From a virus: DNA of 24,048 bases. The stretch lies in IMG/VR virus record IMGVR_UViG_3300017952_000102, positions 1-24,048 of that record; one strand, 5' to 3'. The notes beneath the pieces were generated by a model. It was not told the origin of the DNA. It did no database searches and worked only from the letters and a program-made list of their open reading frames with translations. Within the stretch, counting starts at the first letter, position 1. Every line of letters begins with the position of its first letter. Below are positions 8,547 through 23,442 of the stretch, one piece after another. The position numbers and the translations under genes were made by a program.

Positions 8547-9620
8547 ATGGCCAAATCATTTGACCCGAGCAAGTTTAGAACTGCTCTTACAAAATCTATT
8601 TCAGGCATGAGTGCAGGATTTAATGATCCTACTGATTGGATTTCAACAGGTAACTTTGCACTCAACTATCTTATCTCAGGTGACTTCCACAAAGGTGTAC
8701 CTATGGGTAAGGTGACTGTGTTTGCAGGTGAGTCAGGCGCAGGCAAATCATATATCTGTGCAGGTAACATTGTAAAAGCTGCACAGGATCAAGGCATCTT
8801 TGTTGTATTAATTGACTCAGAGAATGCACTTGATGAAAGTTGGCTACACGCACTTGATGTAGATACTTCAGAAGAAAAACTACTCAAACTAAACATGTCA
8901 ATGATTGATGATGTAGCAAAAACTATTTCCACATTCATGACAGACTACAAAGCAATGGACGAAGAAGATCGTCCTAAAGTTCTGTTTGTTATTGATAGTT
9001 TGGGTATGTTACTAACACCCACAGACGTTGATCAATTTAACAAAGGTGATATGAAAGGTGATATGGGTCGTAAGCCTAAGGCATTGACTTCACTTGTTCG
9101 TAACACAGTTAACATGATTGGTTCGCACAATGTAGGACTTGTATGTACTAACCACACATACGCAAGCCAAGATATGTTTGATCCAGATGACAAAATCAGC
9201 GGTGGACAAGGCTTTATCTATGCAAGTTCAATTGTAGTTGCAATGAAGAAACTAAAACTTAAAGAAGATGAAGACGGTAATAAGATTTCAGAAGTACGTG
9301 GTATTCGTGCTGGCTGTAAAGTTATGAAAACACGTTATGCTAAACCGTTTGAAGGCGTACAAGTAAAGATTCCATATGAAACTGGTATGAATCCATACAG
9401 TGGATTGGTAGATCTTTTTGAGAAAAAAGGCCTGCTTGTTAAAGATGGAAACAGACTAAAATACATTGACTCTAATGGTGAAGAACACAAAGAATATCGC
9501 AAAAACTGGACAGGCGAATTGCTCGATATGGTAATGTCAGATCATGTTAATATTACTGATGAAAAGGTAAATATCCAAGATGATGAAGTAGAACCAATCG
9601 AGGAGCCTGTAAATGGATGA
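8547..9620 (+). CDS. uvsX: RecA-like recombinase (UvsX)
   Basis: This 357-residue recombinase forms filaments on single-stranded DNA and catalyses strand exchange in phage recombination-dependent replication and repair. Walker A is GESGAGKS (61-68) and Walker B is VLFVID (145-150). The segment VCTNHTYASQ and the KISGGQGFIYASS loop correspond to the RecA-type ATPase core and L2 region. The N-terminus (KFRTALTKSISG) and the acidic C-terminal tail resemble T4 UvsX, though the protein is slightly shorter than the T4 one (about 390 residues). An AAAGGAG site (8535-8541) six bases before the ATG supports the start. The 3' end overlaps the next gene by eight bases, indicating an operon with the small acidic gene and uvsY. 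Confidence 0.95.
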   Translation: MAKSFDPSKFRTALTKSISGMSAGFNDPTDWISTGNFALNYLISGDFHKGVPMGKVTVFAGESGAGKSYICAGNIVKAAQDQGIFVVLIDSENALDESWLHALDVDTSEEKLLKLNMSMIDDVAKTISTFMTDYKAMDEEDRPKVLFVIDSLGMLLTPTDVDQFNKGDMKGDMGRKPKALTSLVRNTVNMIGSHNVGLVCTNHTYASQDMFDPDDKISGGQGFIYASSIVVAMKKLKLKEDEDGNKISEVRGIRAGCKVMKTRYAKPFEGVQVKIPYETGMNPYSGLVDLFEKKGLLVKDGNRLKYIDSNGEEHKEYRKNWTGELLDMVMSDHVNITDEKVNIQDDEVEPIEEPVNG

Positions 9621-9840: not shown

Positions 9841-10295
9841 TGGGTTGGTATAGTGAGATATCACGTGATATTTCTAAGATTCCCGACGCAGTAGCTCACT
9901 TTGAGTCAGAACTTTCTGAAGCTCGTAAGGAAGTAAAACTACACGGCAATGTAGAACGAGCCGCGGCAGAAATGCCCGGCATTGTCGAACACCGCTTTAA
10001 TCAACTACAAGAAATTGAAGCAATACTAAACTATCTTAACATTGAATTGCGTAGATTACGTAGTTCATTTTTCAAAAAATATCTTGAAAATTATCAACGA
10101 GCTCTGTCTAGCCGTGACGTTGAAAAATATGTTGACGGCGAGGCAGACGTTGTTGATTACGAAAAGATTATCAACGAATTTGCTCTCATGCGTAACAAAT
10201 GGCTAGGAGTCTTAAAAGCATTAGATCAAAAGCAATGGCAGATAACTAATGTAGTCAAACTAAGAGTAGCTGGCATGGAAGATGCTACATTATAA
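9840..10295 (+). CDS. uvsY: Recombination mediator (UvsY-like)
   Basis: This 151-residue helical protein has the layout of UvsY, which helps UvsX displace gp32 from single-stranded DNA. The C-terminal two thirds carry a Lys/Arg-rich helix (LRSSFFKKYLENYQRALSSR), then DVEKYVDGE and a segment including RNKWLGVLKALDQKQWQI and VVKLRVAGMED. These correspond to the second half of T4 UvsY (spacing of a basic helix, a YSGRGDGDEF-like turn and a final helical pair). T4 UvsY is 137 residues, so the size fits. The start TAATG overlaps the preceding stop, and GAGGA lies upstream. The 3' end overlaps the first gene of the glycan island by 14 bases. Confidence 0.85.
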   Translation: MGWYSEISRDISKIPDAVAHFESELSEARKEVKLHGNVERAAAEMPGIVEHRFNQLQEIEAILNYLNIELRRLRSSFFKKYLENYQRALSSRDVEKYVDGEADVVDYEKIINEFALMRNKWLGVLKALDQKQWQITNVVKLRVAGMEDATL

Positions 10296-11046
10296 AAGAT
10301 TTAATAAAACACCCGAAACAAAAATAGTTGACGGAATGATTGATTTAATATCAATCAAAACTCCTATAGAATATTCGAATATACCAAATGAACACTCAAT
10401 ACATTTTATAGGAGGATTTAGAAGTTCATTAAACAATATAAACATAGTAAAAAACTTTGTTAATATTGATAAAGGATATATACAACCAAATCCTAAAGTT
10501 ACAGATTTTTGGCGCATGTCATATAACAAGTTTCAACAAACAGAAATACTAGATGTTCCTGATGATAGAATAGGTAATATAAAATTAAAGCCTTGGAAAA
10601 AAGATGGTTCTTATATCATTATACTTGCTCCAAATCCGCATCCACTTGATTATTATTTTAATACAAAAATAGAACAGTGGTTAAATGAAATAAAAATTAA
10701 GTTGTTAAAACTAACAGACAGGAAAATTTTTGTAAGATATAAAGATAATAAAAAAATTAGGTCACATGATCCGCTTAAAAAATATTTAAATGATTGCTAC
10801 GCTATCATTACATTACAAAGTTTAGGATCTGTAGAAGCAACATTAGAAGGCATTCCTTGTATAAATCTTGCGCCTAGTTGTTTGCAAGGATTACACAATA
10901 TGACTCTTGATAATATAGAAAATTTAATCTATCCTGAAAATAGATTTGAATGGCTCAAAAGTCTTACTTACAGTCAATTTACTTGGTCTGAAATGCGATC
11001 AGGATATGCGTTAAATACAATAGAGAAATACCAAATAGGAAAATAA
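10282..11046 (+). CDS. GT-B/capsule-transferase-like protein, divergent paralog A
   Basis: This 254-residue protein is the most divergent of five related proteins in the window (others at 13054, 14749, 15663 and 19902). Shared features are an N-terminal half ending in LKPWKKDGSYIIILAPNPHP, a middle LTDRKIFVRY (the others have YTDRPIxxRxHP), and a C-terminal block with ITLQSLGSVEATLEGIPCINLAP followed by IENL and FEWLKSLTYSQFT. The Y/L-x-S, Glu, GIP block resembles the C-terminal nucleotide-sugar-binding half of GT-B enzymes and KpsC/KpsS-like capsule transferases. The RxHP motif is replaced here by RYKD, so the function may have changed or been lost. Translation is probably coupled to uvsY. 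The sugar and acceptor are unknown. Confidence 0.6.
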   Translation: MLHYKRFNKTPETKIVDGMIDLISIKTPIEYSNIPNEHSIHFIGGFRSSLNNINIVKNFVNIDKGYIQPNPKVTDFWRMSYNKFQQTEILDVPDDRIGNIKLKPWKKDGSYIIILAPNPHPLDYYFNTKIEQWLNEIKIKLLKLTDRKIFVRYKDNKKIRSHDPLKKYLNDCYAIITLQSLGSVEATLEGIPCINLAPSCLQGLHNMTLDNIENLIYPENRFEWLKSLTYSQFTWSEMRSGYALNTIEKYQIGK

Positions 11047-11622: not shown

Positions 11623-12399
11623 ATGAAACGTATAGTATTAGTAACAGGTGGATTTGATCCACTACACTCGGGACATATTGCATACTTTAAAGCGGCTAAA
11701 CAATTAGGCGATGAACTTGTTGTTGGTGTTAATTCAGACGATTGGTTAGAACGAAAAAAAGGTCGTCCATTTATGACGTTTGAAGAACGTTTAGAAATTA
11801 TAAGATCACTGGAAGTTGTTGATAGGGTAATAGGATTTGATGACAGCGACGATGACGCTTGTCATGCTATATTTTATCTAATGTCTACATCAAGTTCAGA
11901 TACAAAAATTGTGTTTGCTAACGGTGGTGATAGAACAGATTCTAATATTCCAGAATACGAAACTTACAAAAATATGCCAAATGTTGAATTTGCATTTGGA
12001 GTTGGTGGGGAAGATAAAAAGAATTCTTCAAGTTGGATTCTCAAAGATTGGAAACATCCTAAGACCCTAAGACCTTGGGGTTGGTATAGAGTTCTTGATC
12101 ATCAACCAGGCGAATATAAAGTTAAAGAATTAGTAATAGAACCTGGTAAAAGTCTAAGCGATCAACGTCATTATCACCGATCAGAAAATTGGTATGTACT
12201 AAAGGGCTGTGTAAATATTGACATGGAGTCAGACGGTGGAATTAAAAATGGTATACGGTTAGAAGCAAATTCAAATGCTATAAACATTGGTGCAAAAACT
12301 TGGCACAGAGCATTTAATGACACCGATGAAAATGTACATATCCTTGAAGTGCAATACGGAACAAAGTGCATAGAGGATGATATAGAAAGAAGAGACTAA
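11623..12399 (+). CDS. Cytidylyltransferase-like nucleotidyltransferase fused to a cupin
   Basis: This 258-residue protein combines two domains. Residues 1-145 match the cytidylyltransferase family: GGFDPLHSGH (9-18, with the HxGH-type site), VGVNSDDWLERKKGRPFM (34-51) and FEERLEIIRSL. This is the layout of RfaE C-terminal, TagD and similar enzymes that make NDP-heptose or CDP-glycerol precursors. Residues 150-258 are a cupin: WGWYRVLDH, then RHYHRSENWYVLKG (182-195) and WHRAFNDTDENVHILEVQYG, as in type II phosphomannose isomerases and dTDP-sugar epimerase-like cupins. The fusion suggests a single protein that activates and modifies a sugar phosphate. The exact sugar is unknown. The stop overlaps the next start (TAATG). 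Confidence 0.82.
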   Translation: MKRIVLVTGGFDPLHSGHIAYFKAAKQLGDELVVGVNSDDWLERKKGRPFMTFEERLEIIRSLEVVDRVIGFDDSDDDACHAIFYLMSTSSSDTKIVFANGGDRTDSNIPEYETYKNMPNVEFAFGVGGEDKKNSSSWILKDWKHPKTLRPWGWYRVLDHQPGEYKVKELVIEPGKSLSDQRHYHRSENWYVLKGCVNIDMESDGGIKNGIRLEANSNAINIGAKTWHRAFNDTDENVHILEVQYGTKCIEDDIERRD

Positions 12400-13070
12400 T
12401 GAAAGTATTCATAGGATATGAACCAAGAGAAGACATTGCATACCAAGTATGTAAGCACAGTATCAAGCGTAGACAACCTGCGGCTGAAGTACAACCATTA
12501 ATACAAAAAGACTTGAGAGATACTGGATGGTACAAGCGTCCTGTTGACAAATTAGCAAGTACAGAATTTACATTTACAAGATTTCTTGTACCAGAACTTG
12601 CTGGATTTAAAGGATGGGCAGTGTTTATGGATTGTGATATGATTCTTACAACGGATATAAAAGAACTATTTGATCAAGCAGACGATCGATATGCTGTAAT
12701 GTGTGTAAAGCATGATTATACTCCTCGTGAAGGTATTAAAATGGACGGACAGAAACAAACTATCTATCCACGGAAAAACTGGTCAAGTGTAGTGTTGTGG
12801 AACTGTGCTCATCCAAGTAATAGAAAATTAGATTGCGACATGGTTAATGAAATTGAATTGAATGGTGCGTATTTTCACAGATTTAGTTGGCTAAAAGATG
12901 AGGAAATTGGAGAATTAAATCACACATGGAATTATCTTGTAGGTGTATATGACGATATTGAAAAGCCTAAATTAATACACTATACAGAAGGCGGTCCTTG
13001 GTTTGAAAACTATAGAGACTGTGAGTTTAACGAACTTTGGAAAACTGAACTTTATGATATGTTTAAGTAA
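12399..13070 (+). CDS. GT-A glycosyltransferase with DxD motif
   Basis: This 223-residue protein starts MKVFIGYEPREDIAYQVCKHS and has a metal-binding DxD (FMDCDMIL, D78-C79-D80) after a nucleotide-binding N-terminal segment. This is the pattern of GT8-like retaining glycosyltransferases. The C-terminal part has LNHTWNYLVGVYDD and LIHYTEGGPWF, where the HYTEGGPW stretch matches the conserved H..G..KPW-like end of that family. It would transfer a sugar from a nucleotide donor to a glycan or protein. It overlaps the upstream fusion gene by one base and the downstream paralog B by 17 bases. Donor and acceptor are unknown. The frame is intact. Confidence 0.82.
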   Translation: MKVFIGYEPREDIAYQVCKHSIKRRQPAAEVQPLIQKDLRDTGWYKRPVDKLASTEFTFTRFLVPELAGFKGWAVFMDCDMILTTDIKELFDQADDRYAVMCVKHDYTPREGIKMDGQKQTIYPRKNWSSVVLWNCAHPSNRKLDCDMVNEIELNGAYFHRFSWLKDEEIGELNHTWNYLVGVYDDIEKPKLIHYTEGGPWFENYRDCEFNELWKTELYDMFK

Positions 13071-13842
13071 AAATCTTACTGACGAATATATAAATGCATA
13101 CGCAAAAGGTGCAGGTTTAAGTGTGTATGATTATGATCATGACACCAAAGGAAAATCTGTTTTAATTCGTAGTCTTGCAAAAAGAAAATTTATATGGGAG
13201 TGTGAACGCATTGGTCAAACATACTACTATATGGACAGCGGATATATAGGTAATTACAAAAGCGAACTAAATCCGTTTGGGTGGAAATTGTATCATCGCA
13301 TAGTTAAAAACGGTTTGCAACATAGTAATATAATAGAAAGACCCAGTGATAGATGGGAAGCTCTAAAATATAAAATTGAAAAGCGTAAAAAAGGCGGCAG
13401 ACATATACTATTGGTATTGCCAAGTGAAAAACCTTGTAAATTTTACGGAATAGATAGAGACGAATGGAAAGACAAAACTATAGCCCAGCTTCAATTATAT
13501 ACTGATCGTCCTATAAAAATTAGAGAGAAACAAAACAGATTTACTAGATTAAGGAATACAATATTTGATGATTTACAAAATGCACATGCACTTGTAACCT
13601 ACCAAAGTATTGCAGCAGTTGAAAGTGTTTTATTTGGAGTTCCTGCTTTTACACTTGCACCTACTGCGGCTGATCCAGTTGCTAATAAAAACTTAGCCAA
13701 CATAGAAAAACCTGAAAAGTTTGACAAGGATTATATCTATAGTTGGGCTTGTCATTTAGCATACGGGCAGTTTCATATTAACGAATTAAAAGACGGAACA
13801 GCCCATAGAATAATATTAGGAGACAATAATGGCAAAGCCTAA
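13054..13842 (+). CDS. GT-B/capsule-transferase-like protein, paralog B
   Basis: I choose ATG 13054 (MICLSKNLTDEYINAY, 262 residues) instead of an upstream ATG at 13003, because the extra 17 residues only overlap the previous gene and paralogs have similar compact N-termini. Family features are YYYMDSGYIGNYKSELNPFGW (57-77, described here as a Gly/Tyr-rich stretch), YTDRPIKIRE (149-158), and TYQSIAAVESVLFGVPAFTL (182-201), followed by ADPVANKNLANIEKP and LAYGQFHINELKDGTA. The HP of the RxHP motif seen in the other paralogs is EK here. The C-terminal block resembles the GT-B donor-binding half. The overlap with neighbours suggests coupled translation. The substrate is unknown. Confidence 0.68.
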   Translation: MICLSKNLTDEYINAYAKGAGLSVYDYDHDTKGKSVLIRSLAKRKFIWECERIGQTYYYMDSGYIGNYKSELNPFGWKLYHRIVKNGLQHSNIIERPSDRWEALKYKIEKRKKGGRHILLVLPSEKPCKFYGIDRDEWKDKTIAQLQLYTDRPIKIREKQNRFTRLRNTIFDDLQNAHALVTYQSIAAVESVLFGVPAFTLAPTAADPVANKNLANIEKPEKFDKDYIYSWACHLAYGQFHINELKDGTAHRIILGDNNGKA

Positions 13843-14755
13843 ATTTGTAGTTTTTCATAGGATGGATCAAAACAACGTTGGAGATATGTATTCAAATCCT
13901 TTGAGATATTTTTTAAAACCAGATGAATATCAAACAATAGATATTACACACGTTGGATCTGAAGCATATCCTTATGATGTACCTGTTATTGCAGGCGGCG
14001 GCGGATTAATAGGTAATGAATTGTTTGGTGAAAATCTTTTATCATTGTTAAACGATCCAGATAAAAATACTGCCCTACAACAATGGCGTGCTGCTTGGGA
14101 AATAGTAAATCCTACAAATGCAAATGTACATCATAGATTTTTAGAAAAATTACAACCTATTCTAAATGAATATTTAAATAGTTTAGAAAATAGATCTGCA
14201 CCAACAATACTCTGGGGTGCAGGAACAAATGAAGACGTAGGAAATAAAAGGCCTAAGTCTCCAAATTATCCAGGTTGGTTAAATTTTTTCAGTCACGTTG
14301 GATTAAGAGATTGGACAAATGCATATAAATGGGCACCATGTGCAAGCTGTATGCACCCAAGTTTTAATCAAAAATATCCTATAAAGAACAAAGTAATTTG
14401 GTTTGAACACAAAAAACAATTAATTAAATCAAGTAATTTTGGTCCTGAACCTGTACCGCGTTTTGTCAACAGTGGAGCAAATATGGAACAAACAATTGAA
14501 TTACTAGGTAGTGCTGAAACTATTGTAACCAACAGTTATCATGGAGCATATTGGGGCACACTGTTAGGTAGAAAAGTTGTTGTTGTTGAACCTTGGAGTT
14601 CTAAATTCTTTTTCTTAAAACACAAACCTTACATGCTAAGTAAAGGTGAAGATTTACAATGGGGTATAGAACAAGCAGAAACACACCCGCATGCTTTACA
14701 AGAATGTAGACAAGCAACACAACAGTATTGGAATGAGATTCAAGCAGCATGTTAA
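13829..14755 (+). CDS. Polysaccharide pyruvyl transferase family protein
   Basis: This 308-residue protein matches the pyruvyl transferase family (CsaB/WcaK type), which puts pyruvate ketals on cell-surface sugars using phosphoenolpyruvate. Visible marks are NVGDMYSNPL near the N-terminus (N16-G18-D19), the glycine-rich IAGGGGLIGN (54-63), ILWGAGTNED in the middle, VGLRDW, and the C-terminal TNSYHGAYWGTLLGRKVVVV (234-253), whose SYHG is the hallmark of the family. The end is FFLKHKPYML and a helical tail. The start at 13829 overlaps paralog B by 14 bases, and the stop overlaps paralog C by seven. This is one of the best clues that the island modifies an acidic polysaccharide. Confidence 0.87.
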   Translation: MAKPKFVVFHRMDQNNVGDMYSNPLRYFLKPDEYQTIDITHVGSEAYPYDVPVIAGGGGLIGNELFGENLLSLLNDPDKNTALQQWRAAWEIVNPTNANVHHRFLEKLQPILNEYLNSLENRSAPTILWGAGTNEDVGNKRPKSPNYPGWLNFFSHVGLRDWTNAYKWAPCASCMHPSFNQKYPIKNKVIWFEHKKQLIKSSNFGPEPVPRFVNSGANMEQTIELLGSAETIVTNSYHGAYWGTLLGRKVVVVEPWSSKFFFLKHKPYMLSKGEDLQWGIEQAETHPHALQECRQATQQYWNEIQAAC

Positions 14756-15666
14756 AAGTAGTAGCTTACAAAGCAGGAGTACCTAACCCTCATAAAAGTC
14801 CTCACAAAGTAGAAGTACTTGATAAGTTTATTCAAGGTGTTCAAGCATGTGGTGATATAGGTATTCTACATGATAAAACCAATATACTTGAAAGTGATGT
14901 GAATCTTATACAAGGTTGGGTACATGCTGGCAGTCCTAATAGTACACACCTGCAGGTGAGACGCAGAGCATATGATGCAAATAAAAATGCAGGAAAACAT
15001 ACTATAATTGTAGATAGCAATTTGTTTAACTATGATGTAGGTAAATTTCATCCTATGCACTATTCACGATACAGCATGGATGGAGTATTTCCTACTACAG
15101 GAAATTATTTTGGAGATAGTCCTGATCCTAGTCGTTGGAAACAGATATCAAAAGATTTAGGATTAAGTTTAAAAGATTGGCGACAAAATGGCATTCATAT
15201 ATTAATAACGACACAACGAAACGGCGGGTGGAGTATGGCTGGGTTAGGTGTTGTTGATTGGCTAGAACAAACAGTAAAAGAAATTAGAAAATATACAGAC
15301 CGTCCGATTGTTGTGAGAGGACATCCTGGTGATAAAAATGCAGTAAAGTATTTAAAATCAAATAAAAGATATACAGTCAGTAAAAACCCAAAACTAACTC
15401 AAGACTTACAAAATGCTTGGGCTACTATAACCTATAATAGTTCTCCTGGAGTTGCAAGTGCAATAGAAGGTATACCTTTGTTTGTTACAGATCCTAATCC
15501 AAAAATAAGTCAAGCATATGATGTAGCTAATACTAATCTATCACAAATTGAAACCCCACAAATTTTTGAAAGACAACAATGGATCGAAAGGCTTGCTATG
15601 TGTCATTGGAAATTTCAAGAACTACAAGACGGCAGTGCTTGGCGTTATATGAGAGAATATTTATGA
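14749..15666 (+). CDS. GT-B/capsule-transferase-like protein, paralog C
   Basis: This 305-residue member of the five-paralog family has the core motifs in good order: IIVDSNLFNY (86-95), WRQNGIHILITTQRNGGWSM (144-163), KYTDRPIVVRGHP (181-193), DLQNAWATITYNSSPGVASA (219-238), then IEGIPLFV and YDVANTNLSQIETP. A final WIERLAMCHWKFQELQDGSAW block follows. The R-x-H-P, the YNS and the E-G-I-P are the same signature positions that KpsC/KpsS-like capsule transferases use to bind the nucleotide sugar; this comparison is from memory. The start overlaps the pyruvyl transferase stop. Direct coupling to paralog D follows through ATGA at 15663-15666. Confidence 0.7.
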   Translation: MLKVVAYKAGVPNPHKSPHKVEVLDKFIQGVQACGDIGILHDKTNILESDVNLIQGWVHAGSPNSTHLQVRRRAYDANKNAGKHTIIVDSNLFNYDVGKFHPMHYSRYSMDGVFPTTGNYFGDSPDPSRWKQISKDLGLSLKDWRQNGIHILITTQRNGGWSMAGLGVVDWLEQTVKEIRKYTDRPIVVRGHPGDKNAVKYLKSNKRYTVSKNPKLTQDLQNAWATITYNSSPGVASAIEGIPLFVTDPNPKISQAYDVANTNLSQIETPQIFERQQWIERLAMCHWKFQELQDGSAWRYMREYL

Positions 15667-16610
15667 TTAAAATGATCGGGTTTCCTTCACCAGCTAGTAA
15701 ACTTTACTTTGGTTGGGAAAAAGGTATTGCTAAAAATGGTGATAAGTTTATTAGTGTAAAAACTCTAGATGATCCTATTTTAAAACAAGTTGATTGCTAT
15801 TATCAAACTAATGAAATAAAGCCAAAATTTTTAGATGAACGTAGAATAACTTGGCACGGTAAGTATATGCTACACATAAAAAATAGCGGCAAACCTTTTA
15901 TTGTAAGTGAAAGTGAGCCTTTCAGAGAACATAAAGGATGGCTTCGCTTTGGATGGAATAGTTATAGATGGAACGATGCGAATTGGAACAATGACAATGT
16001 TGGACCAGAACGTTGGAATAGATTTGAAAAACTTACTAAAATAAAATTCACTGATTGGCATAGCCCTGGCGATAATATTCTTATAATGGGTCAAAAAGAA
16101 GGAGACAGCAGTTTAGTTAGAATTTACCAAGAAGGATATGAAAGTATCTACAATTGGATCTACGATCAAATTTTAACTATAAGAAAATACACCGACAGAC
16201 CAATAGTAATACGTCCTCATCCTAGAAACTTGGATCGAGGAGTAAAAATTGTAAATAGGTTATTAGAAAAGAATGATTTAAAAAATGTTGCAATTAGTAA
16301 CAATTTAACTTCAGGAGGCAATCAAGGTGGAGAAGGACTAGATAAAGATTTTTCAGAAGCCTATTGCACTGTCACATACAACAGTTTAAGTAGTGTAGAA
16401 TCTGTAGTTCGAGGCATTCCTGTATTTGCACTTGACGGAGGAAGCATGGCATTTCCTGTTGCACACAAAGATCTTAAAGATATTGAAAATTTAAAATATG
16501 ATATTGATTTACAAGATTGGAAAAATAAAATTGCATATGCTATGTGGAATAAACAAGATGTAATCTCAGGTGAGTGTTGGAATCATTTGAAAGGCGTTCA
16601 CTTTAAATGA
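15663..16610 (+). CDS. GT-B/capsule-transferase-like protein, paralog D
   Basis: The start is set at ATG 15663 (MIKMIGFPSPASKLYFGWEK, 315 residues), which forms an ATGA overlap with paralog C; a longer frame from 15579 would add 28 residues inside the previous gene. Family motifs are SPGDNILIMGQKEGDSSL (134-151), KYTDRPIVIRPHPR (175-188), TVTYNSLSSVESVVRGIPVF (236-255), VAHKDLKDIENL and WKNKIAYAMWNKQD. It keeps the complete RPHP motif, which makes it, with paralog E, the best candidate for an active member. The stop overlaps the FkbM gene start by ATGA. Its precise donor and acceptor are unknown. Confidence 0.7.
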   Translation: MIKMIGFPSPASKLYFGWEKGIAKNGDKFISVKTLDDPILKQVDCYYQTNEIKPKFLDERRITWHGKYMLHIKNSGKPFIVSESEPFREHKGWLRFGWNSYRWNDANWNNDNVGPERWNRFEKLTKIKFTDWHSPGDNILIMGQKEGDSSLVRIYQEGYESIYNWIYDQILTIRKYTDRPIVIRPHPRNLDRGVKIVNRLLEKNDLKNVAISNNLTSGGNQGGEGLDKDFSEAYCTVTYNSLSSVESVVRGIPVFALDGGSMAFPVAHKDLKDIENLKYDIDLQDWKNKIAYAMWNKQDVISGECWNHLKGVHFK

Positions 16611-17245: not shown

Positions 17246-18447
17246 ATAGTTGGGATTGCTTCGATACATTAATTGCAAGATTGCATTATCATCCTAAAAC
17301 AGTGTTTGACGAAGTAGGACGCCGCATAGGCGATCCTAATTTTAAATCCAAAAGAGTTGCTGCTGAAAAAGCCAGCAATAAAACATATCAAGACATATAC
17401 GCAAGACTACCCGGTATTGACCCACAGGTTGAATTAGATGTTGAGTTAGAGCATAATTATCCAATCTTTGAAAACATAAACAAAGTACAAGACGGAGATT
17501 TAATCCTCAGCGATATGTACCTTCCTAAAGATTTTATTTTAAAAATGTTGCGTAATGTAGGTTTATCTAAAGACGTAGATATAATTGTTACACCTGACGG
17601 TAAGAAAAAAGGCTGGGTTTGGAATGAGGTAAAAAACAAATATAGTATAGATAATCACTACGGCGACAACATGAAAAGTGATGTTAAATCTGCGCAAGCC
17701 AATAGTGTTAATGGAGTATATTATAGCGGCTACGAGTTTACTGACATTGAACAAATGGTTTACAAACACGACAAACAACTTGCTTGTTGGATGCGTAGCA
17801 TAAGGTTGCTATGTCCGTTTAACAATGAAAGACATATTAAATTCTGGAATGATCAAGCAAATATAAACATGCCTGTATTAGCACTTGCCACGTTAGAATT
17901 ACCTAATACACCTATAGCATTTAGTTATAGAGATTGTTATAATTGGCATTATCTATATGAAACAATGACAGGAAAAACAGGATATAGATTAGATGTATCA
18001 AGACAAATGTATCTCAGTCCTAATGAATATTTTAAAAAATATATGTCTTTTGTAAAAGAAAAAAAAGCAACAATAGTTGATATGCAAGGCAAAGGTAGAA
18101 GTATATTAAAGTTCTATGAAGGCAACCCACCTGATACATTATACATAGGAGGCAGCACACCTGACTATATAACACAACTTGTGCCATATCAAACTAAGAG
18201 CATGGAAAAACACAACTGCTACGAAGAAGGACCTGTTATAGATTTTAATGAACACGGTCCTGTGCGAGATATAAATGATCATCCAGCTGATGTAGCCGAT
18301 ATACATAAAAAGGCAGGGCAAGCCGCTCGTAGATACGTTAACAAGTTTAAATTTAAAAAAAATAAAGAATTGCTTTTTGAACTTGTAAAACTATATGACA
18401 CAAAAAACTTTACAAACAAAAATGTTAGTTGGTCAAAAAATAATTAA
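17242..18447 (+). CDS. HAD-superfamily protein with second domain (COG5610-like)
   Basis: This 401-residue protein has a HAD N-terminal domain: motif I WDCFDTLIAR with nucleophile D5, motif II ILSDMYLP, a Lys-rich motif III region (DGKKKGW) and motif IV HYGDNMKSDV. The second half has FSYRDCYNWHYLYE, then LDVSRQMYLSPNEYFKKYM and ATIVDMQGKGRSILKFYEG. This order recalls the RDG, SR and VD-G-G-T pattern found C-terminal to HAD domains in COG5610-type proteins that sit next to glycosyltransferases. It could remove phosphate from a sugar or lipid intermediate. The gene overlaps FkbM by ATGA and converges on the minus-strand sulfotransferase with a 23-base overlap. The exact role is unknown. Confidence 0.72.
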   Translation: MNSWDCFDTLIARLHYHPKTVFDEVGRRIGDPNFKSKRVAAEKASNKTYQDIYARLPGIDPQVELDVELEHNYPIFENINKVQDGDLILSDMYLPKDFILKMLRNVGLSKDVDIIVTPDGKKKGWVWNEVKNKYSIDNHYGDNMKSDVKSAQANSVNGVYYSGYEFTDIEQMVYKHDKQLACWMRSIRLLCPFNNERHIKFWNDQANINMPVLALATLELPNTPIAFSYRDCYNWHYLYETMTGKTGYRLDVSRQMYLSPNEYFKKYMSFVKEKKATIVDMQGKGRSILKFYEGNPPDTLYIGGSTPDYITQLVPYQTKSMEKHNCYEEGPVIDFNEHGPVRDINDHPADVADIHKKAGQAARRYVNKFKFKKNKELLFELVKLYDTKNFTNKNVSWSKNN

Positions 18448-19024
18448 AAAATTCAAAATCTTTTTGATATCTATTTAGAATTATTTCTTTAGTATCAGAG
18501 TTAAATTCTATGTCAATATGGTTTGTGTTATGATGATTAAACTGTGGCGCAGGAATATCAAGAGACCATTTATTAATATTTTCTAATTTTATAATTTCAA
18601 GATCATTGACATATGGTTCTACAAAAATAAATTGACTTTTAAAATGGATATCTAGATCCGCATCAGAAGTATTAGATAAAAATTGTGCAAATTCTATTGG
18701 CGACCAATCTAAAGATATGTTTGCTTTTTTACCTCGTTTTGGTCTTTTTATAAACATATCTTTATACATGCTGCAGAATCTATACCAAGGATTTCTCACT
18801 ACAGTAAAATTTTTTAAGCCATTTTTTAAAGCAAGTTCCGGAGAAATAACTTTTTGTTTTGCAAACGATCTTTTAAACTTAATCTCATCATTTATATTTT
18901 GTATACCTGTAGACAAAATTTGAAAATGATTTAAAACTGTAGTGGTGCCACATTTGTATATAGGCCAAAAATTTACTCCAAGATTCGACCATTGAGTAAT
19001 AGCTCTTTTTTTATTGCTTATCAT
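18425..19024 (-). CDS. Carbohydrate sulfotransferase-like protein
   Basis: This 199-residue protein shows both PAPS-binding motifs of the Sulfotransfer_2 family: the 5'-phosphosulfate loop YKCGTTTVLNHF (23-34) and the 3'-phosphate motif VVRNPWYRFCSMY (75-87). Further marks are IHFKSQFIFVEPYV and IIKLENINKW, and a final NRYQKDFEFFNY typical of the family's C-terminus. It would transfer sulfate to a sugar, fitting the island. ATG 19024 is chosen: it makes an ATGA overlap with the upstream glycosyltransferase stop, while a TTG two codons earlier has no support. It is transcribed opposite to most neighbours, in a two-gene unit with the gene at 19021-19863. The partial gene at 1-450 belongs to the same superfamily. 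Confidence 0.82.
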   Translation of the reverse strand: MISNKKRAITQWSNLGVNFWPIYKCGTTTVLNHFQILSTGIQNINDEIKFKRSFAKQKVISPELALKNGLKNFTVVRNPWYRFCSMYKDMFIKRPKRGKKANISLDWSPIEFAQFLSNTSDADLDIHFKSQFIFVEPYVNDLEIIKLENINKWSLDIPAPQFNHHNTNHIDIEFNSDTKEIILNRYQKDFEFFNYFLTN

Positions 19025-19863
19025 TTCCAATAGTCTTCTGAGCGATTTACCATAATATCAGAACGTTTACTTTTTCCTGTAACTTTACGATTACCTTTCA
19101 TGTGGTCAATCCATTGTCCTAAAGGACCATTTATCAACGGATGACCGCCGCCACCTGACTTTGCTTCACGCAAATACATGTCAGCACTATAGTCAAGAAC
19201 GTTTGCATCTATAGGTTTTAATTGATTTAATATATGTCCAAAAACAAAACTATCATGCCATTCATCTAATTCAAATATGCCATTGTCTGCATCTTCGTAG
19301 AATCTTTCAAATTCAGCAAGAAATTGTTTACACATAGGATGCCTTAAATTCATTCCATAAAAGCCACACTCTGGCCAAGTTTGTGATCCTTTGCCTCTGC
19401 CTACATATGTCAACCATTTGTTATCTGGAAGAAGTTTTTTAAATTGCTTGTGCTTCCATTCGGTATGCACAAAAGTATCTGCATCCATCCAAACTAACCA
19501 ATCTGTTCCACAACGTTCGGCAGCATCAAACACAGCATAAACTTTGTTTGCAAATCTAACAGCATCCCATTTAAATGCTTTGTTCCAATCACTGCGCCTG
19601 TTTTTGATATGCTGCGGTGGAATGCCATTTGCTTTAGGATCATCCTTCCAACGTTCTTTGAATGCGTTTAGTTTAGGTAATTCTTTTTTTGCATCTAGTA
19701 TTGTAAGTTGTTTTGTTTCTAAATTCACAGGAGCACAGTTTTCTGCATATACTAACATCTTAATTTTAGATTCTACTTGTTGAGTAAAAGAATTTAAAAA
19801 TCTCTGACCGTATTGTTCAAGACCAGGTTTGTGAAATGTAGTAACCACAGTTATGTCTGACAT
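19021..19863 (-). CDS. GT-A-like glycosyltransferase with DxD motif
   Basis: This 280-residue protein starts MSDITVVTTFHKPGLEQYGQ, a nucleotide-binding-like strand, and contains WLVWMDADTFVHTEW with DxD at D127-A128-D129. It continues with TYVGRGKGSQTWPECGFYGM and a DEWHDSFVFG block where the conserved acidic residues of the second half of GT-A folds would lie. It is a plausible glycosyltransferase, although the C-terminal part does not match a named family that I know. It has AAAGGA (on its strand) a few bases before the ATG and a late-type TTAAATA upstream. It is the first gene of a two-gene minus-strand unit with the sulfotransferase, so the pair may add and then sulfate a sugar. Confidence 0.72.
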   Translation of the reverse strand: MSDITVVTTFHKPGLEQYGQRFLNSFTQQVESKIKMLVYAENCAPVNLETKQLTILDAKKELPKLNAFKERWKDDPKANGIPPQHIKNRRSDWNKAFKWDAVRFANKVYAVFDAAERCGTDWLVWMDADTFVHTEWKHKQFKKLLPDNKWLTYVGRGKGSQTWPECGFYGMNLRHPMCKQFLAEFERFYEDADNGIFELDEWHDSFVFGHILNQLKPIDANVLDYSADMYLREAKSGGGGHPLINGPLGQWIDHMKGNRKVTGKSKRSDIMVNRSEDYWK

Positions 19864-19875
19864 TGCTTATCCTTT

Positions 19876-19882
19876 GTAAATA
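19876..19882 (+). promoter_or_regulatory. Putative late promoter of paralog E
   Basis: GTAAATA lies in the 38-base divergent gap before ATG 19902. The T4 geometry puts the start near 19888, giving a 14-base leader with no ribosome site. A minus-strand counterpart occurs at 19893-19899. Confidence 0.4.
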
Positions 19883-19892
19883 TAGTACAGAG

Positions 19893-19899
19893 TATTTAA
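19893..19899 (-). promoter_or_regulatory. Putative late promoter of the minus-strand pair
   Basis: Read on the minus strand this is TTAAATA, with a start expected near 19887 and a 24-base leader that includes AAAGGA before the ATG at 19863. It faces away from the plus-strand motif and would drive the glycosyltransferase and sulfotransferase. Confidence 0.45.
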
Positions 19900-19901
19900 T
19901 C

Positions 19902-20750
19902 ATGAAATTTAATTTATGGAGACAATATGGCGCACTTAATTCTGGCCCTGTTTTTGACGCCTTTCACGCTGGCGCTAATGCTCTTGGGCATGATGTTATT
20001 GTTAATGGTAACGATGGGATTGATGTTATTTGGAGCGTACTTTTCAACGGTCGTATGGGTAGAAACCGTGCTATTTGGGAAAAGAACATTCAAGAATCCA
20101 AACCGACCATCGTACTAGAAGTTGGCGGCATCAAGCGAGGTACAACTTGGAAAGTTGGGCTTAATGGTATTAACAGAGATGCCTACTTTGGTGAAAGCGG
20201 CAACGATAACAGTAGAGCAAAAAAATTTAATTTGAAATTAAAACCTTGGCACAATGATGGTGAATTTATTTTAATAGCAGGTCAACACGACAAAAGTTTA
20301 CAATGGGCCAACATGCCTAGAATGAGCACCTGGACTTTAGACATTATAGATAAACTACAAAAATATACAAAAAGACCTATTATTTTTAGACCGCATCCTA
20401 GGTGTCCTTTACCTGACATAGAAAAAGAATACAAGAACGTAAAAAGACAAGATCCTGCTCACATAAGAGGATCATATGATGATTTTGATATGTCTTTTTC
20501 AAATGTATATGCTACAATAAATTATTCTAGTAATCCTGGAATCCATAGTGTAATAGAAGGTGTTCCTGCATTTGTAGGTATATCGTCATTAGCCTATGAT
20601 GTTGCTAATGATATAGATTTCTTACACGACATTGAGAATCCTTTGATGCCAGATAGGCAACAATGGTTAAATGACTACGCATTTACCGAATGGACGACTG
20701 AAGAAATTTCTCAAGGTTTGCCACTTAAACACTTGACTTCTAAGTTGTAA
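19902..20750 (+). CDS. GT-B/capsule-transferase-like protein, paralog E
   Basis: I choose ATG 19902 (MKFNLWRQYGALNSGPVFDA, 282 residues); an upstream ATG at 19863 would add 13 residues lying in the divergent gap. Family motifs are TIVLEVGGIKRGTTWKVG (69-86), WHNDGEFILIAGQHDKSLQW (116-135), KYTKRPIIFRPHPR (154-167), TINYSSNPGIHSVIEGVPAF, then YDVANDIDFLHDIENP and RQQWLNDYAFTEW. It retains the RPHP motif and is most like paralog C near its end. The 5' third (19902-20130) is less AT-rich than neighbouring genes, which may mark a different source or constraint. It lies apart from the other paralogs, after the inverted pair, and just before the uvsW promoter. Confidence 0.7.
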   Translation: MKFNLWRQYGALNSGPVFDAFHAGANALGHDVIVNGNDGIDVIWSVLFNGRMGRNRAIWEKNIQESKPTIVLEVGGIKRGTTWKVGLNGINRDAYFGESGNDNSRAKKFNLKLKPWHNDGEFILIAGQHDKSLQWANMPRMSTWTLDIIDKLQKYTKRPIIFRPHPRCPLPDIEKEYKNVKRQDPAHIRGSYDDFDMSFSNVYATINYSSNPGIHSVIEGVPAFVGISSLAYDVANDIDFLHDIENPLMPDRQQWLNDYAFTEWTTEEISQGLPLKHLTSKL

Positions 20751-20767: not shown

Positions 20768-21988
20768 ATGAAAATACAAACAGCAGAAGATCTCATCGAA
20801 ATCATATCTGGAATGACGCAGGGTAACTACACCTTTAAAATCGATCCTAGTGATAAAAATTTAATGTTCAGTCTTGGCAAACAGTGTTTGAGGCAGATAC
20901 CTTTTACCGATAGACAGTACGAACTAGCCAAACGAAAGATATTAGATTACAAACATCAGCTAGAGCAAAACGGTTTCGACAACATTAATGAAACTATTGA
21001 TAATTTACGACAACCATTAAGATCAATAGATAGATCAAAAACTATAAGGTTAGTAGAAATTAATGATGATTTAAAAATAGCTGTGCGTTTTCCTTTTGCA
21101 AAAAACATGATCAAATACATTGAAATTTTAAATCAATTACATAAAAATAAAGGCTACGACAAAGCAAACAAAACACATTACATAGACCCAACTGAAAAAA
21201 ATATTTACAAAATAGTAGGCAACTTCCAAAAGGCAAACTTTGAGATAGAGGATTCTCTCGAAAAACAATATAGGAAGTTATTAGAAATGAAACAAAACGA
21301 AAAAGGTTATGTACCCGGTATATACGGATTGCAACTGAAAAATTTACATAACAAAGCATTTGATTATGCAATAAGTTCAATTGGACAACCTAGTTTGGAA
21401 AATTTAGCACTGTATAAAGACAGACAAGAAATTTTTGGTTTAGATTATTTTGACGAAGAAGATCTTAATGAAAGTGTTAAACATTTACAACCTTTAACAA
21501 AAAGTATTATCAATAGAAAGAAACAACATATACTTGTAAAAAATACAAAGTATACTATTAACAATCTAGCTGAATCTATATTAGAATTACATAGATTTCC
21601 TTTGCTAGTTGTGTTACCTAATGACGATGATAGTTTGGATGCATTACAAACTGTGTATGAATGTTTTAAAGGAATACTACTTGACGAATCATGCACAGTG
21701 ATGTTTAGGAAAGACAATAAAAATGAATTAGATAGAAGGTTCAATGATTATATTAAAGAAAAAAATCTTAACAATTCTCTTGCAAAATCAACAAAAGTAG
21801 TGTATATTAGTAATAATAAAATACCAAAACCGTTACTAGCAAGCAACTGGACTCCTAGTGCTGTGCTAATGTGCGGTAGCCGGAGAGCTAATGTGAAACT
21901 TGAACCATATACTAACGAATGTGATTTAGTAATTCATTATGACTCCGACTCAACACCTTTTATGCATCGGGATATTGAAGAAGTATGA
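20768..21988 (+). CDS. Unknown protein with HARP-like segment, upstream partner of uvsW
   Basis: This 406-residue protein has no complete motor motif. Residues about 103-161 (KIAVRFPFAKNMIKYIEILN, then GYDKANKTHYIDP and FQKANFEIEDSL) follow the pattern of the HARP-like domain of SMARCAL1-type remodellers: a strand, a helix, a variable W/Y turn and a final strand-helix. The last third (FPLLVVLP, CTVMFRKDNK, TKVVYISNNKIPKPLL, VLMCGSRRANVKLEPYTNECDLVIHY) looks like the second RecA fold of a superfamily 2 helicase without its arginine finger, so it may be a degenerate motor. It overlaps uvsW by ATGA and shares its promoter, which suggests a job in replication fork or branch handling with UvsW. 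This is inference. Confidence 0.6.
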   Translation: MKIQTAEDLIEIISGMTQGNYTFKIDPSDKNLMFSLGKQCLRQIPFTDRQYELAKRKILDYKHQLEQNGFDNINETIDNLRQPLRSIDRSKTIRLVEINDDLKIAVRFPFAKNMIKYIEILNQLHKNKGYDKANKTHYIDPTEKNIYKIVGNFQKANFEIEDSLEKQYRKLLEMKQNEKGYVPGIYGLQLKNLHNKAFDYAISSIGQPSLENLALYKDRQEIFGLDYFDEEDLNESVKHLQPLTKSIINRKKQHILVKNTKYTINNLAESILELHRFPLLVVLPNDDDSLDALQTVYECFKGILLDESCTVMFRKDNKNELDRRFNDYIKEKNLNNSLAKSTKVVYISNNKIPKPLLASNWTPSAVLMCGSRRANVKLEPYTNECDLVIHYDSDSTPFMHRDIEEV

Positions 21989-23442
21989 CAACTTGTAGAA
22001 TAGTAATACAAGATGAAGTTAATATTAAACTAGAAAACCTTCCTGTAGAAATACGTAGGAAGATAGCCAATCGTTTGAAATTTGAAGTGCCATACGCACG
22101 ATATATGCCGCAGTATAAACTAGGACGTTGGGACGGCAAAGTTAATTTTTTTGGTATTGGCGGCACAGGATATGTTAACCATCTTGATGTAATTCAACAA
22201 GTGCTATTAGAAAACAATGTTGAAATCACAGACATTGACGATCAACGCATACCTGTTGATTTGAAATTTAATACTATTGAAGAAGATTTCTGGGGTGATA
22301 AAACCTGGCCAAAAGGTCATCCTGCCGAAGGCGAACCGATACGATTAAGAGATTATCAAGTAGAGGTTATAAACAACTTCTTGCAAAATCCACAATCATT
22401 GCAAGAGGTAGCTACAGGCGCTGGTAAGACTATTATCACTGCTACACTGAGTAAGATCACAGAACCATATGGACGTAGTCTAGTTGTAGTTCCTAACAAA
22501 AGTTTGGTAACACAAACTGAAGAGGACTATATTAATTGTGGTCTTGATGTTGGCGTATATTTTGGCGACAGAAAAGAGCTTGGCAAGACTCACACCATCT
22601 GCACTTGGCAAAGTTTAAACATACTTGACAAGAAGCACAAGGATGGTTCGGCTGTTTTGAGCCTTGCCGAGTTTCTAGAAGGCGTAAACACTATTATTAT
22701 TGACGAAGTACATCAAGCAAAAGCAGAAGTACTTAAAAACTTGTTAACACGCAATTTGCGTAATGCTCCTATCCGTTGGGGCTTGACAGGAACTATTCCA
22801 AAAGAAAAATTTGAGTTTGAAAGTATTCATGCAAGTCTTGGTCCAGTGATTGGACAGGTAAGTGCCAAAGAACTACAGGACAAAGGTGTGTTATCACAGT
22901 GTCATGTAAATGTTGTACAACTTATGGATTTGCCAGAGTTCCGTGACTATCAATCTGAATTAAAATATCTTGTTACAGATAAAAAGAGAATTGAGTATAT
23001 AGGCAAACTATTAAATGGTGTAAAAGATTCGGGCAACACTCTAATACTTGTAGATCGTATTAGTGCAGGTGAAATGCTACAAGAACTTATACCAGGCTCA
23101 ACATTTGTAAAAGGCGATGTTAAACTAAAAGATAGAAAGGAAGCATATGACGAAATCAACGAGGGGACTAACCACGTGGTTATTGCAACGTATGGCGTGG
23201 CGGCTGTTGGTATTAATATTCCTCGTATTTTTAATCTTGTTCTCATAGAACCAGGCAAGTCATTTGTAAGAGTGATACAATCAATAGGCAGAGGCGTAAG
23301 AAAGGCAAAGGACAAAGACTTCGTGCAAATATGGGATCTTACAAGCACTTGTAAGTTTGCGAAGCGGCATCTCACACAACGTAAAAAGTTTTACAAAGAG
23401 GCGCAATACCCATTTACAATAGAAAAAGTAGATTGGAACTAA
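21985..23442 (+). CDS. uvsW: Superfamily 2 DNA/RNA helicase (UvsW)
   Basis: This 485-residue helicase resembles T4 UvsW (503 residues), which remodels branched DNA, unwinds R-loops and helps shift the phage from origin- to recombination-dependent replication. The N-terminal UvsW-specific domain includes RYMPQYKLGRWDGKVNFF (39-56). Motor motifs are RLRDYQVEVI (Q-like, 120-129), Walker A ATGAGKT (143-149), DEVH (240-243), LTGTIP (267-272) in domain one, and YGVAAVGINIP, LIEPGKSFVRVIQSIGRGVR in domain two, ending with QIWDLTSTCKFAKRH. All motor motifs look intact. It starts at an ATGA overlap with the upstream gene, so translation is probably coupled. Confidence 0.95.
   Translation: MTTCRIVIQDEVNIKLENLPVEIRRKIANRLKFEVPYARYMPQYKLGRWDGKVNFFGIGGTGYVNHLDVIQQVLLENNVEITDIDDQRIPVDLKFNTIEEDFWGDKTWPKGHPAEGEPIRLRDYQVEVINNFLQNPQSLQEVATGAGKTIITATLSKITEPYGRSLVVVPNKSLVTQTEEDYINCGLDVGVYFGDRKELGKTHTICTWQSLNILDKKHKDGSAVLSLAEFLEGVNTIIIDEVHQAKAEVLKNLLTRNLRNAPIRWGLTGTIPKEKFEFESIHASLGPVIGQVSAKELQDKGVLSQCHVNVVQLMDLPEFRDYQSELKYLVTDKKRIEYIGKLLNGVKDSGNTLILVDRISAGEMLQELIPGSTFVKGDVKLKDRKEAYDEINEGTNHVVIATYGVAAVGINIPRIFNLVLIEPGKSFVRVIQSIGRGVRKAKDKDFVQIWDLTSTCKFAKRHLTQRKKFYKEAQYPFTIEKVDWN

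What the first reader, a model, noticed from the sequence alone, without database searches (positions are those of the whole stretch)
11623..12399. Nucleotidyltransferase-cupin fusion
A cytidylyltransferase-type domain (GGFDPLHSGH) is joined to a C-terminal cupin with HYHRSENW. Phosphomannose isomerase cupins are usually fused to a different, mannose-1-phosphate guanylyltransferase fold, so joining one to a TagD/RfaE-type fold is an unusual combination and may reveal the sugar that feeds the island.
Basis: partly seen in the sequence, partly recalled or inferred. Interest (0 to 1): 0.52.

Follow-up and report, generated by a model that had tools for sequence, protein, structure and literature searches.

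The report
Alternative mannose-activating enzyme in marine phages
A phage gene joins two enzyme parts that together probably make activated mannose, by a protein design that also seems to replace the textbook enzyme in some of the ocean's most abundant bacteria.

Summary
ORF 11623-12399 (258 aa) is a HIGH-type nucleotidyltransferase (NT, residues 1-143) fused to a phosphomannose-isomerase-type (PMI) cupin (144-258). It is not a rarity: the fusion occurs in 55 IMG/VR loci (a few cut off) and at least 80 genome-contig loci, and is a syntenic chromosomal gene of SAR86 and part of SAR11.

Genomes with the fusion lack ManC, the standard enzyme with another NT fold but the same PMI cupin. Pelagibacterales: 48 fusion, 58 ManC, 0 both, of 117. 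SAR86 order: 62, 15, 0, of 121. Type I PMI was found in 1 of 80 genomes. GDP-mannose 4,6-dehydratase (GMD) is in 24 of 48 and 16 of 62 fusion genomes. The fusion takes ManC's place in SAR86 sugar operons and overlaps gmd in two phages. The NT is one clade, but its cupins come from more than one PMI lineage.

Best reading: a non-orthologous ManC analogue making mannose-6-phosphate and GDP-mannose; in this phage it sits in a glycosyltransferase cassette between uvsX and uvsW. Activity and nucleotide are inferred. One phage operon with heptose genes supports a manno-heptose rival.

The parts
11623..12399 (+). NT-cupin fusion ORF, 258 aa
   Evidence: Pfam; 55 IMG/VR loci; 80 genome-contig loci
11623..12051 (+). 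HIGH-superfamily nucleotidyltransferase domain (residues 1-143): HSGH motif, NGGDR, K-x-N-SSS
   Evidence: invariant residues
11665..11676 (+). HSGH catalytic-type motif (residues 15-18)
   Evidence: H15 and H18 in 132 of 133 NT rows, the other a gap
12052..12396 (+). PMI-type cupin domain (residues 144-258)
   Evidence: PF01050; structural match to Thermococcus PMIs
12163..12186 (+). candidate metal ligands Q181, H183, E188 with R186 (H228 lies at 12304-12306)
   Evidence: identical in 126 of 126 fusion cupins and 19 of 19 ManC or stand-alone cupins; ligand role recalled from type I PMI
12399..13070 (+). GT8-like glycosyltransferase, next gene of the cassette
   Evidence: Pfam PF01501 and phrog_28018; a homologue follows the NT-cupin at +1 in 26 of 56 viral loci
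13003..13842 (+). glycosyltransferase-like protein (weak DUF6716, below cut-off)
   Evidence: homologue in 32 of 56 viral loci
14749..15666 (+). glycosyltransferase-like protein, cassette member (label by resemblance to its neighbours)
   Evidence: homologue in 33 of 56 viral loci
19863..20750 (+). glycosyltransferase-like protein near the uvsW end (label by resemblance to its neighbours)
   Evidence: homologue in 32 of 56 viral loci
8547..9620 (+). UvsX-like recombinase, left border of the island
   Evidence: homologue upstream of the NT-cupin in 33 of 56 viral loci; gene name by recall
21985..23442 (+). UvsW-like helicase, right border of the island
   Evidence: homologue in 12 of 56 viral loci, many of which are cut before it; gene name by recall

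Best explanation
The protein is a bifunctional mannose-activating enzyme. The cupin converts fructose-6-phosphate to mannose-6-phosphate. A phosphomannomutase, which the phage would have to borrow from its host, makes mannose-1-phosphate. The HIGH-type NT domain then joins this to a nucleotide, most likely from GTP, giving GDP-mannose. It works like ManC (GMP-PMI), whose NT domain has an unrelated fold, and it replaces ManC in much of SAR86 and part of SAR11. The phage carries it in a glycosyltransferase cassette, probably to secure sugar donor for glycosylating its virion or the host surface. Shown: domains, conserved sites, distribution, exclusion with ManC, gene neighbours, more than one cupin source. 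Inferred: catalysis, GTP as nucleotide, use by the cassette.
For: (1) Exclusion with ManC: 48 fusion, 58 ManC, 0 both of 117 Pelagibacterales; 62 intact fusions, 15 ManC, 0 both of 121 in the SAR86 order; counts. (2) Among 80 chosen genomes, none of the 60 SAR11 and SAR86 fusion genomes (one, G159, with a broken copy) showed a ManC NT domain. Type I PMI was found in 0 of 80 (PF01238) and 1 of 80 (PF20511). (3) GMD over its curated cut-off in 24 of 48 and 16 of 62 fusion genomes. Of 28 such genomes examined, 25 have two phosphohexomutases, and their NTP_transferase hits look by size and score like RmlA, GalU, GlmU and MurU kinds, except one of 344-368 aa in five genomes that I did not identify. 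(4) Operons: pgsA-ugd-NTcupin-galU-wzz-gmd-fcl (L146) and metK-NTcupin-ahcY-gmd-fcl (L145), against ugd-ManC-fcl-gmd (L161) and wzz-ugd-ManC-fcl-gmd (L159). (5) Phages L017 and L044: NT-cupin overlaps a gmd gene by 4 and 1 bp; L022 has both in one operon. (6) The NT is one clade against HldE-type domains, but the fusion cupins are not one clade. (7) All 126 fusion cupins keep Q181, H183, E188 and H228.
Against: No biochemistry exists, and NT specificity cannot be read from sequence. NT-only forms lie in slots where relatives carry the fusion (L151, L153) and in cyanophages (L179, L180), so the NT can do without the cupin. The fusion is kept in 24 of 48 and 46 of 62 genomes with no GMD over the cut-off, and GMD is over its cut-off in 7 of 10 Pelagibacterales genomes with neither enzyme, so GMD alone proves nothing. 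In SAR11 the gene sits beside polA, not in a sugar operon. One phage operon (L022) adds HddA- and GmhA-like genes, which fits heptose. G009 carries the fusion together with a separate ManC-like NT and a type I PMI; G006 also has a ManC-like NT, but its fusion lies on a phage contig. The window itself has no gmd, fcl or phosphomannomutase homologue. Genomes within an order are related, so the Fisher p-values overstate the evidence; the number of independent switches was not counted.
Confidence: 0.6

Rival explanations
1. Same two activities, but the NT uses ATP, CTP or UTP, giving a non-GDP activated mannose (for example ADP- or CDP-mannose) for a dedicated glycosyltransferase.
For: The nearest NT families are HldE (ATP) and TagD, ECT and CCT (CTP) (nucleotides recalled). 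In SAR11 the gene is not beside gmd.
Against: It lies beside or overlaps gmd, which is named for GDP-mannose, in SAR86 and phages. Genomes with GMD show no other recognised mannose guanylyltransferase.
Confidence: 0.15
2. The NT activates a manno-heptose-1-phosphate (an HldE or HddC replacement), and the cupin acts on a related sugar phosphate.
For: Nearest equivalog model is RfaE domain II. Phage L022 carries HddA- and GmhA-like genes in the same operon. GMD homologues that act on GDP-heptose are known (recalled).
Against: In the SAR86 order HldE-type proteins occur in 10 of 62 fusion and 10 of 15 ManC genomes: the fusion excludes ManC but not HldE, although HldE is less frequent with the fusion. 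HddA- and GmhA-like genes were found together only in L022 and L148, plus GmhA alone in L174, among the loci held. The HldE motif KGGDY is NGGDR here.
Confidence: 0.15
3. The NT is a TagD- or ECT-like cytidylyltransferase for an alditol or amino-alcohol phosphate, and the cupin is only a binding or regulatory appendage.
For: The fold is close to glycerol-3-phosphate cytidylyltransferase (1coz Z 15.8); ECT tops phmmer; NT-only homologues exist.
Against: Cupin sites are invariant in 126 of 126; different PMI cupins are joined to one NT lineage; exclusion with ManC. It scores 50.5 bits against a cut-off of 165.4 for the GCT equivalog.
Confidence: 0.08

Closest known systems
ManC / GMP-PMI (type II phosphomannose isomerase, TIGR01479)
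   Same: C-terminal PMI cupin with the same invariant residues; place in the ugd-gmd-fcl operon; mutually exclusive distribution
   Different: N-terminal NT is HIGH-type (PF01467), not the NTP_transferase fold; about 258 aa against about 400-480; phage cupins (0 of 39) and most SAR86 ones (28 of 35) lack the C-terminal YGR-type tail
HldE / HldC heptose-1-phosphate adenylyltransferase (RfaE domain II, TIGR02199)
   Same: Fold, HxGH motif, GGD motif region; HldC 5xf2 has the highest sequence identity among the structural matches listed (33%)
   Different: Separate clade (97/95 support); NGGDR for KGGDY; no kinase domain; scores 74.2 bits against a cut-off of 181.5
TagD / glycerol-3-phosphate cytidylyltransferase (TIGR01518, 1coz)
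   Same: Fold, Z 15.8 over 126 residues
   Different: 50.5 bits against a cut-off of 165.4; TagD has no cupin (recalled)
Stand-alone archaeal PMI cupins (7zvy, 7zvm)
   Same: Cupin fold, Z about 17; called phosphomannose isomerase by the depositors
   Different: Not fused to an NT; 15-16% identity

Membership tests
ManC / GMP-PMI (TIGR01479) | N-terminal NTP_transferase-fold mannose-1-phosphate guanylyltransferase domain | tested here: not met
   Only profile positions 355-460 match (72.3 bits, cut-off 372.95); the N-terminus is PF01467
ManC / GMP-PMI (TIGR01479) | C-terminal PMI cupin with conserved metal-site residues | tested here: met
   PF01050 77.6 bits; Q181, H183, E188, H228 identical to 19 of 19 ManC or stand-alone cupins
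ManC / GMP-PMI (TIGR01479) | Both enzyme activities | not testable with these tools
   needs an assay
MannoseP_isomer cupin (PF01050) | score over the gathering cut-off | tested here: met
   77.6 against 23.6 bits
CTP_transf_like (PF01467) | score over the gathering cut-off and HxGH motif | tested here: met
   57.4 against 21 bits; HSGH at residues 15-18
HldE adenylyltransferase (TIGR02199) | score over the equivalog cut-off | tested here: not met
   74.2 against 181.5 bits
HldE adenylyltransferase (TIGR02199) | KGGDY-type motif | tested here: not met
   N100 and R104 in 133 of 133 rows; K and Y in 6 of 6 HldE-type rows; that the motif defines the family is recalled
Glycerol-3-phosphate cytidylyltransferase (TIGR01518) | score over the equivalog cut-off | tested here: not met
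   50.5 against 165.4 bits

The most novel reading that the evidence does not exclude
A second, unrelated-fold solution to GDP-mannose synthesis: a HIGH-superfamily mannose-1-phosphate guanylyltransferase that has paired with PMI cupins from more than one source, has displaced ManC in much of SAR86 and part of SAR11, and is carried by aquatic phages to feed their own glycosylation cassettes.
Probability: 0.55. Interest if true: 0.75.

Novelty: new variant of a known kind. Interest (0 to 1): 0.62.

Why it matters
If right, the step that makes GDP-mannose in some of the most abundant marine bacteria is done by an enzyme that today scores under heptose or glycerol cytidylyltransferase models, so pathway reconstructions of SAR86 and SAR11 would miss mannose and fucose synthesis. 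The phage copy would identify a sugar behind a cassette conserved in aquatic T4-like phages. The same PMI cupin joined to two unrelated NT folds would be a clear case of convergent enzyme fusion, and a short enzyme assay can test it.

Tried and rejected
'Unique phage oddity' was rejected. 'HldE replacement' was ranked lower, because HldE-type proteins occur with both fusion and ManC. 'The fusion marks a polysaccharide island everywhere' was rejected: in SAR11 the slot is polA-NTcupin-MFS, with pckA further on. Reading L057/L157 as a bacterial copy was rejected: the 335 kb contig filed under a Neomarinimicrobiota MAG has the window's own gene order around the island, so it is a phage contig. 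L059-L061 also carry a distant terminase homologue. No isolate phage with the whole fusion turned up: of 32 INPHARED records with a match, 0 cover 80% of the query. Plasmids: 0 of 403. Ten paper searches gave no description; of the papers listed I saw passages of two, PMC3569297 (SAR86 hypervariable region with GDP-mannose dehydratases) and PMC8231724, and listings of the rest. In the VIA-align list most rows are cupins, and its absence of a family excludes nothing.

Rows dropped: one search left out cupin hits of 60 bits or less or spanning under 100 profile positions, and NT rows of L050, L052, L053 and the second NT-like ORFs of L024 and L145. Trees were thinned at 80% identity to 82 and 80 rows. 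Rows named HldE in the trees were labelled by frame length and profile hit only; two of them (L169, L170) are long-branched and may be other cytidylyltransferases.

Full report
What is there. ORF 11623-12399 (258 aa) has a CTP_transf_like domain and a MannoseP_isomer cupin, both over Pfam's gathering scores. NCBIfam gives RfaE domain II (74.2 bits, cut-off 181.5), GCT (50.5, cut-off 165.4) and GMP_PMI (72.3 bits over profile positions 355-460, cut-off 372.95): related to all, a member of none. The model (pLDDT 91) puts residues 1-143 on GCT and HldC and 144-258 on solved PMIs.

Setting. The window is a 24 kb virus record. Its terminase is nearest to PA5oct-type jumbo phages (about 55% identity). 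The island between uvsX- and uvsW-like genes recurs: of 56 viral loci (55 of IMG/VR plus L057), 33 hold a uvsX homologue, and in 26 the NT-cupin is followed at once by a homologue of the GT8-like protein at 12399. A 335 kb contig in a Neomarinimicrobiota bin shows the same order (L157) and is taken to be a mis-binned phage.

Distribution. The fusion was found in 55 IMG/VR loci (a few are cut off, and L054 is a cupin alone) and the best 80 of at least 356 confirmed genome-contig loci, mostly SAR11 and SAR86. In 41 SAR11 loci it lies between polA and an MFS gene.

Exclusion with ManC. The A1 search also detects ManC through its cupin. Of 117 Pelagibacterales genomes, 48 have the fusion, 58 a ManC-type frame, none both, one a fusion fragment and 10 neither. 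Loci from eight of the ManC-type genomes were read and show ManC-like N-termini. Of 121 genomes in the SAR86 order, 62 have an intact fusion, 15 ManC, none both; 4 have broken copies and 3 NT only. In the order of G007, 1 of 81 has the fusion and one has NT and cupin as separate genes on different contigs. Among 80 chosen genomes, none of the 60 SAR11 and SAR86 fusion genomes shows a ManC NT; G006 and G009 do. Type I PMI is absent from all 80 by PF01238 and present in 1 of 80 by PF20511 (G009).

Link to GDP-mannose. GMD over its curated cut-off is in 24 of 48 and 16 of 62 fusion genomes, 34 of 58 and 5 of 15 ManC genomes, and 7 of 10 Pelagibacterales genomes with neither. From the coordinates, 13 of the 16 SAR86-order pairs of fusion and GMD lie within 40 kb on one contig, in genomes of about 0.7-1.5 Mb. 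Operons: L145, L146 and L147 (GMD and Fcl of L145 and L146, Fcl below its cut-off) beside ManC operons L159-L162. In L164 and L165 ManC lies just before uvrC-pgsA, and in L087, L146, L147 and L175 the fusion lies after uvrC-pgsA (uvrC and pgsA named in L087 and by eye elsewhere). In phages L017 and L044 the NT-cupin overlaps a gmd gene (427.9 and 397.3 bits, cut-off 415). L022 has gmd (432.2), Fcl-like, GmhA-like and HddA-like genes with it.

Evolution. The NTs form one clade against HldE-type domains (97/95). The cupins do not: the SAR11 fusions and six SAR86 fusions group with ManC and stand-alone PMI cupins (100/98), and AU rejects one clade of all 67 fusion cupins, p 0.0016 (post hoc). One NT lineage has thus been paired with PMI cupins from more than one source, or has exchanged them; this argues that the pairing is functional.

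Mechanism. Cupin: Q181, H183, E188, H228, K168, R186, N232, E242, E251, D253 and R256 are invariant in 126 fusion cupins and in 19 ManC or stand-alone cupins; Gln-His-Glu-His as the metal site is recalled from type I PMI. NT: H15, H18, K45, K46, N100, R104, S136 and S137 are invariant apart from gaps. Inferred path: fructose-6-P, mannose-6-P (cupin), mannose-1-P (host phosphomannomutase), GDP-mannose (NT). The use made of it by the phage is inference from the cassette; GT8 enzymes mostly use UDP-sugars (recalled), so the direct user may be another gene of the island.

Verdict. It works like ManC, as far as genome evidence can show, and is not a ManC by family rules. New variant of a known kind; function unproven.

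Noticed in passing
L057 / L157 (PBPT01000016.1, 335 kb): A jumbo-phage contig with the window's gene order is filed inside a Candidatus Neomarinimicrobiota MAG; L059-L061 in a Rhodobacteraceae bin also carry a distant terminase homologue.
   Followed up: partly
window 10282-11046, 13003-13842, 14749-15666, 15579-16610, 19863-20750: Several glycosyltransferase-like proteins of the island resemble each other (shared YTDRPI...HP stretch by eye, cross-hits) and have no confident Pfam match (where run): a paralogous family expanded within the island.
   Followed up: no
L179 8992-9456; L180 8992-9453: Cyanophages S-SSM7 and P-TIM68 carry the NT without a cupin between gp43 and uvsX, annotated as a heptose kinase/adenylyltransferase.
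   Followed up: partly
L151 5011-5475; L153 4107-4550: SAR86-order genomes with NT only in slots where relatives carry the fusion (metK-NT-ahcY, and between transhydrogenase and gyrA genes): the cupin appears lost.
   Followed up: partly
L022 4484-10276: A phage operon with HddA-like, Fcl-like, GmhA-like, NT-cupin, methyltransferase and gmd genes: possibly a 6-deoxy-sugar or heptose path carried by a phage.
   Followed up: partly
window 18425-19030 (-): By eye a sulfotransferase-like protein in the island, on the opposite strand; not run against any family library.
   Followed up: no
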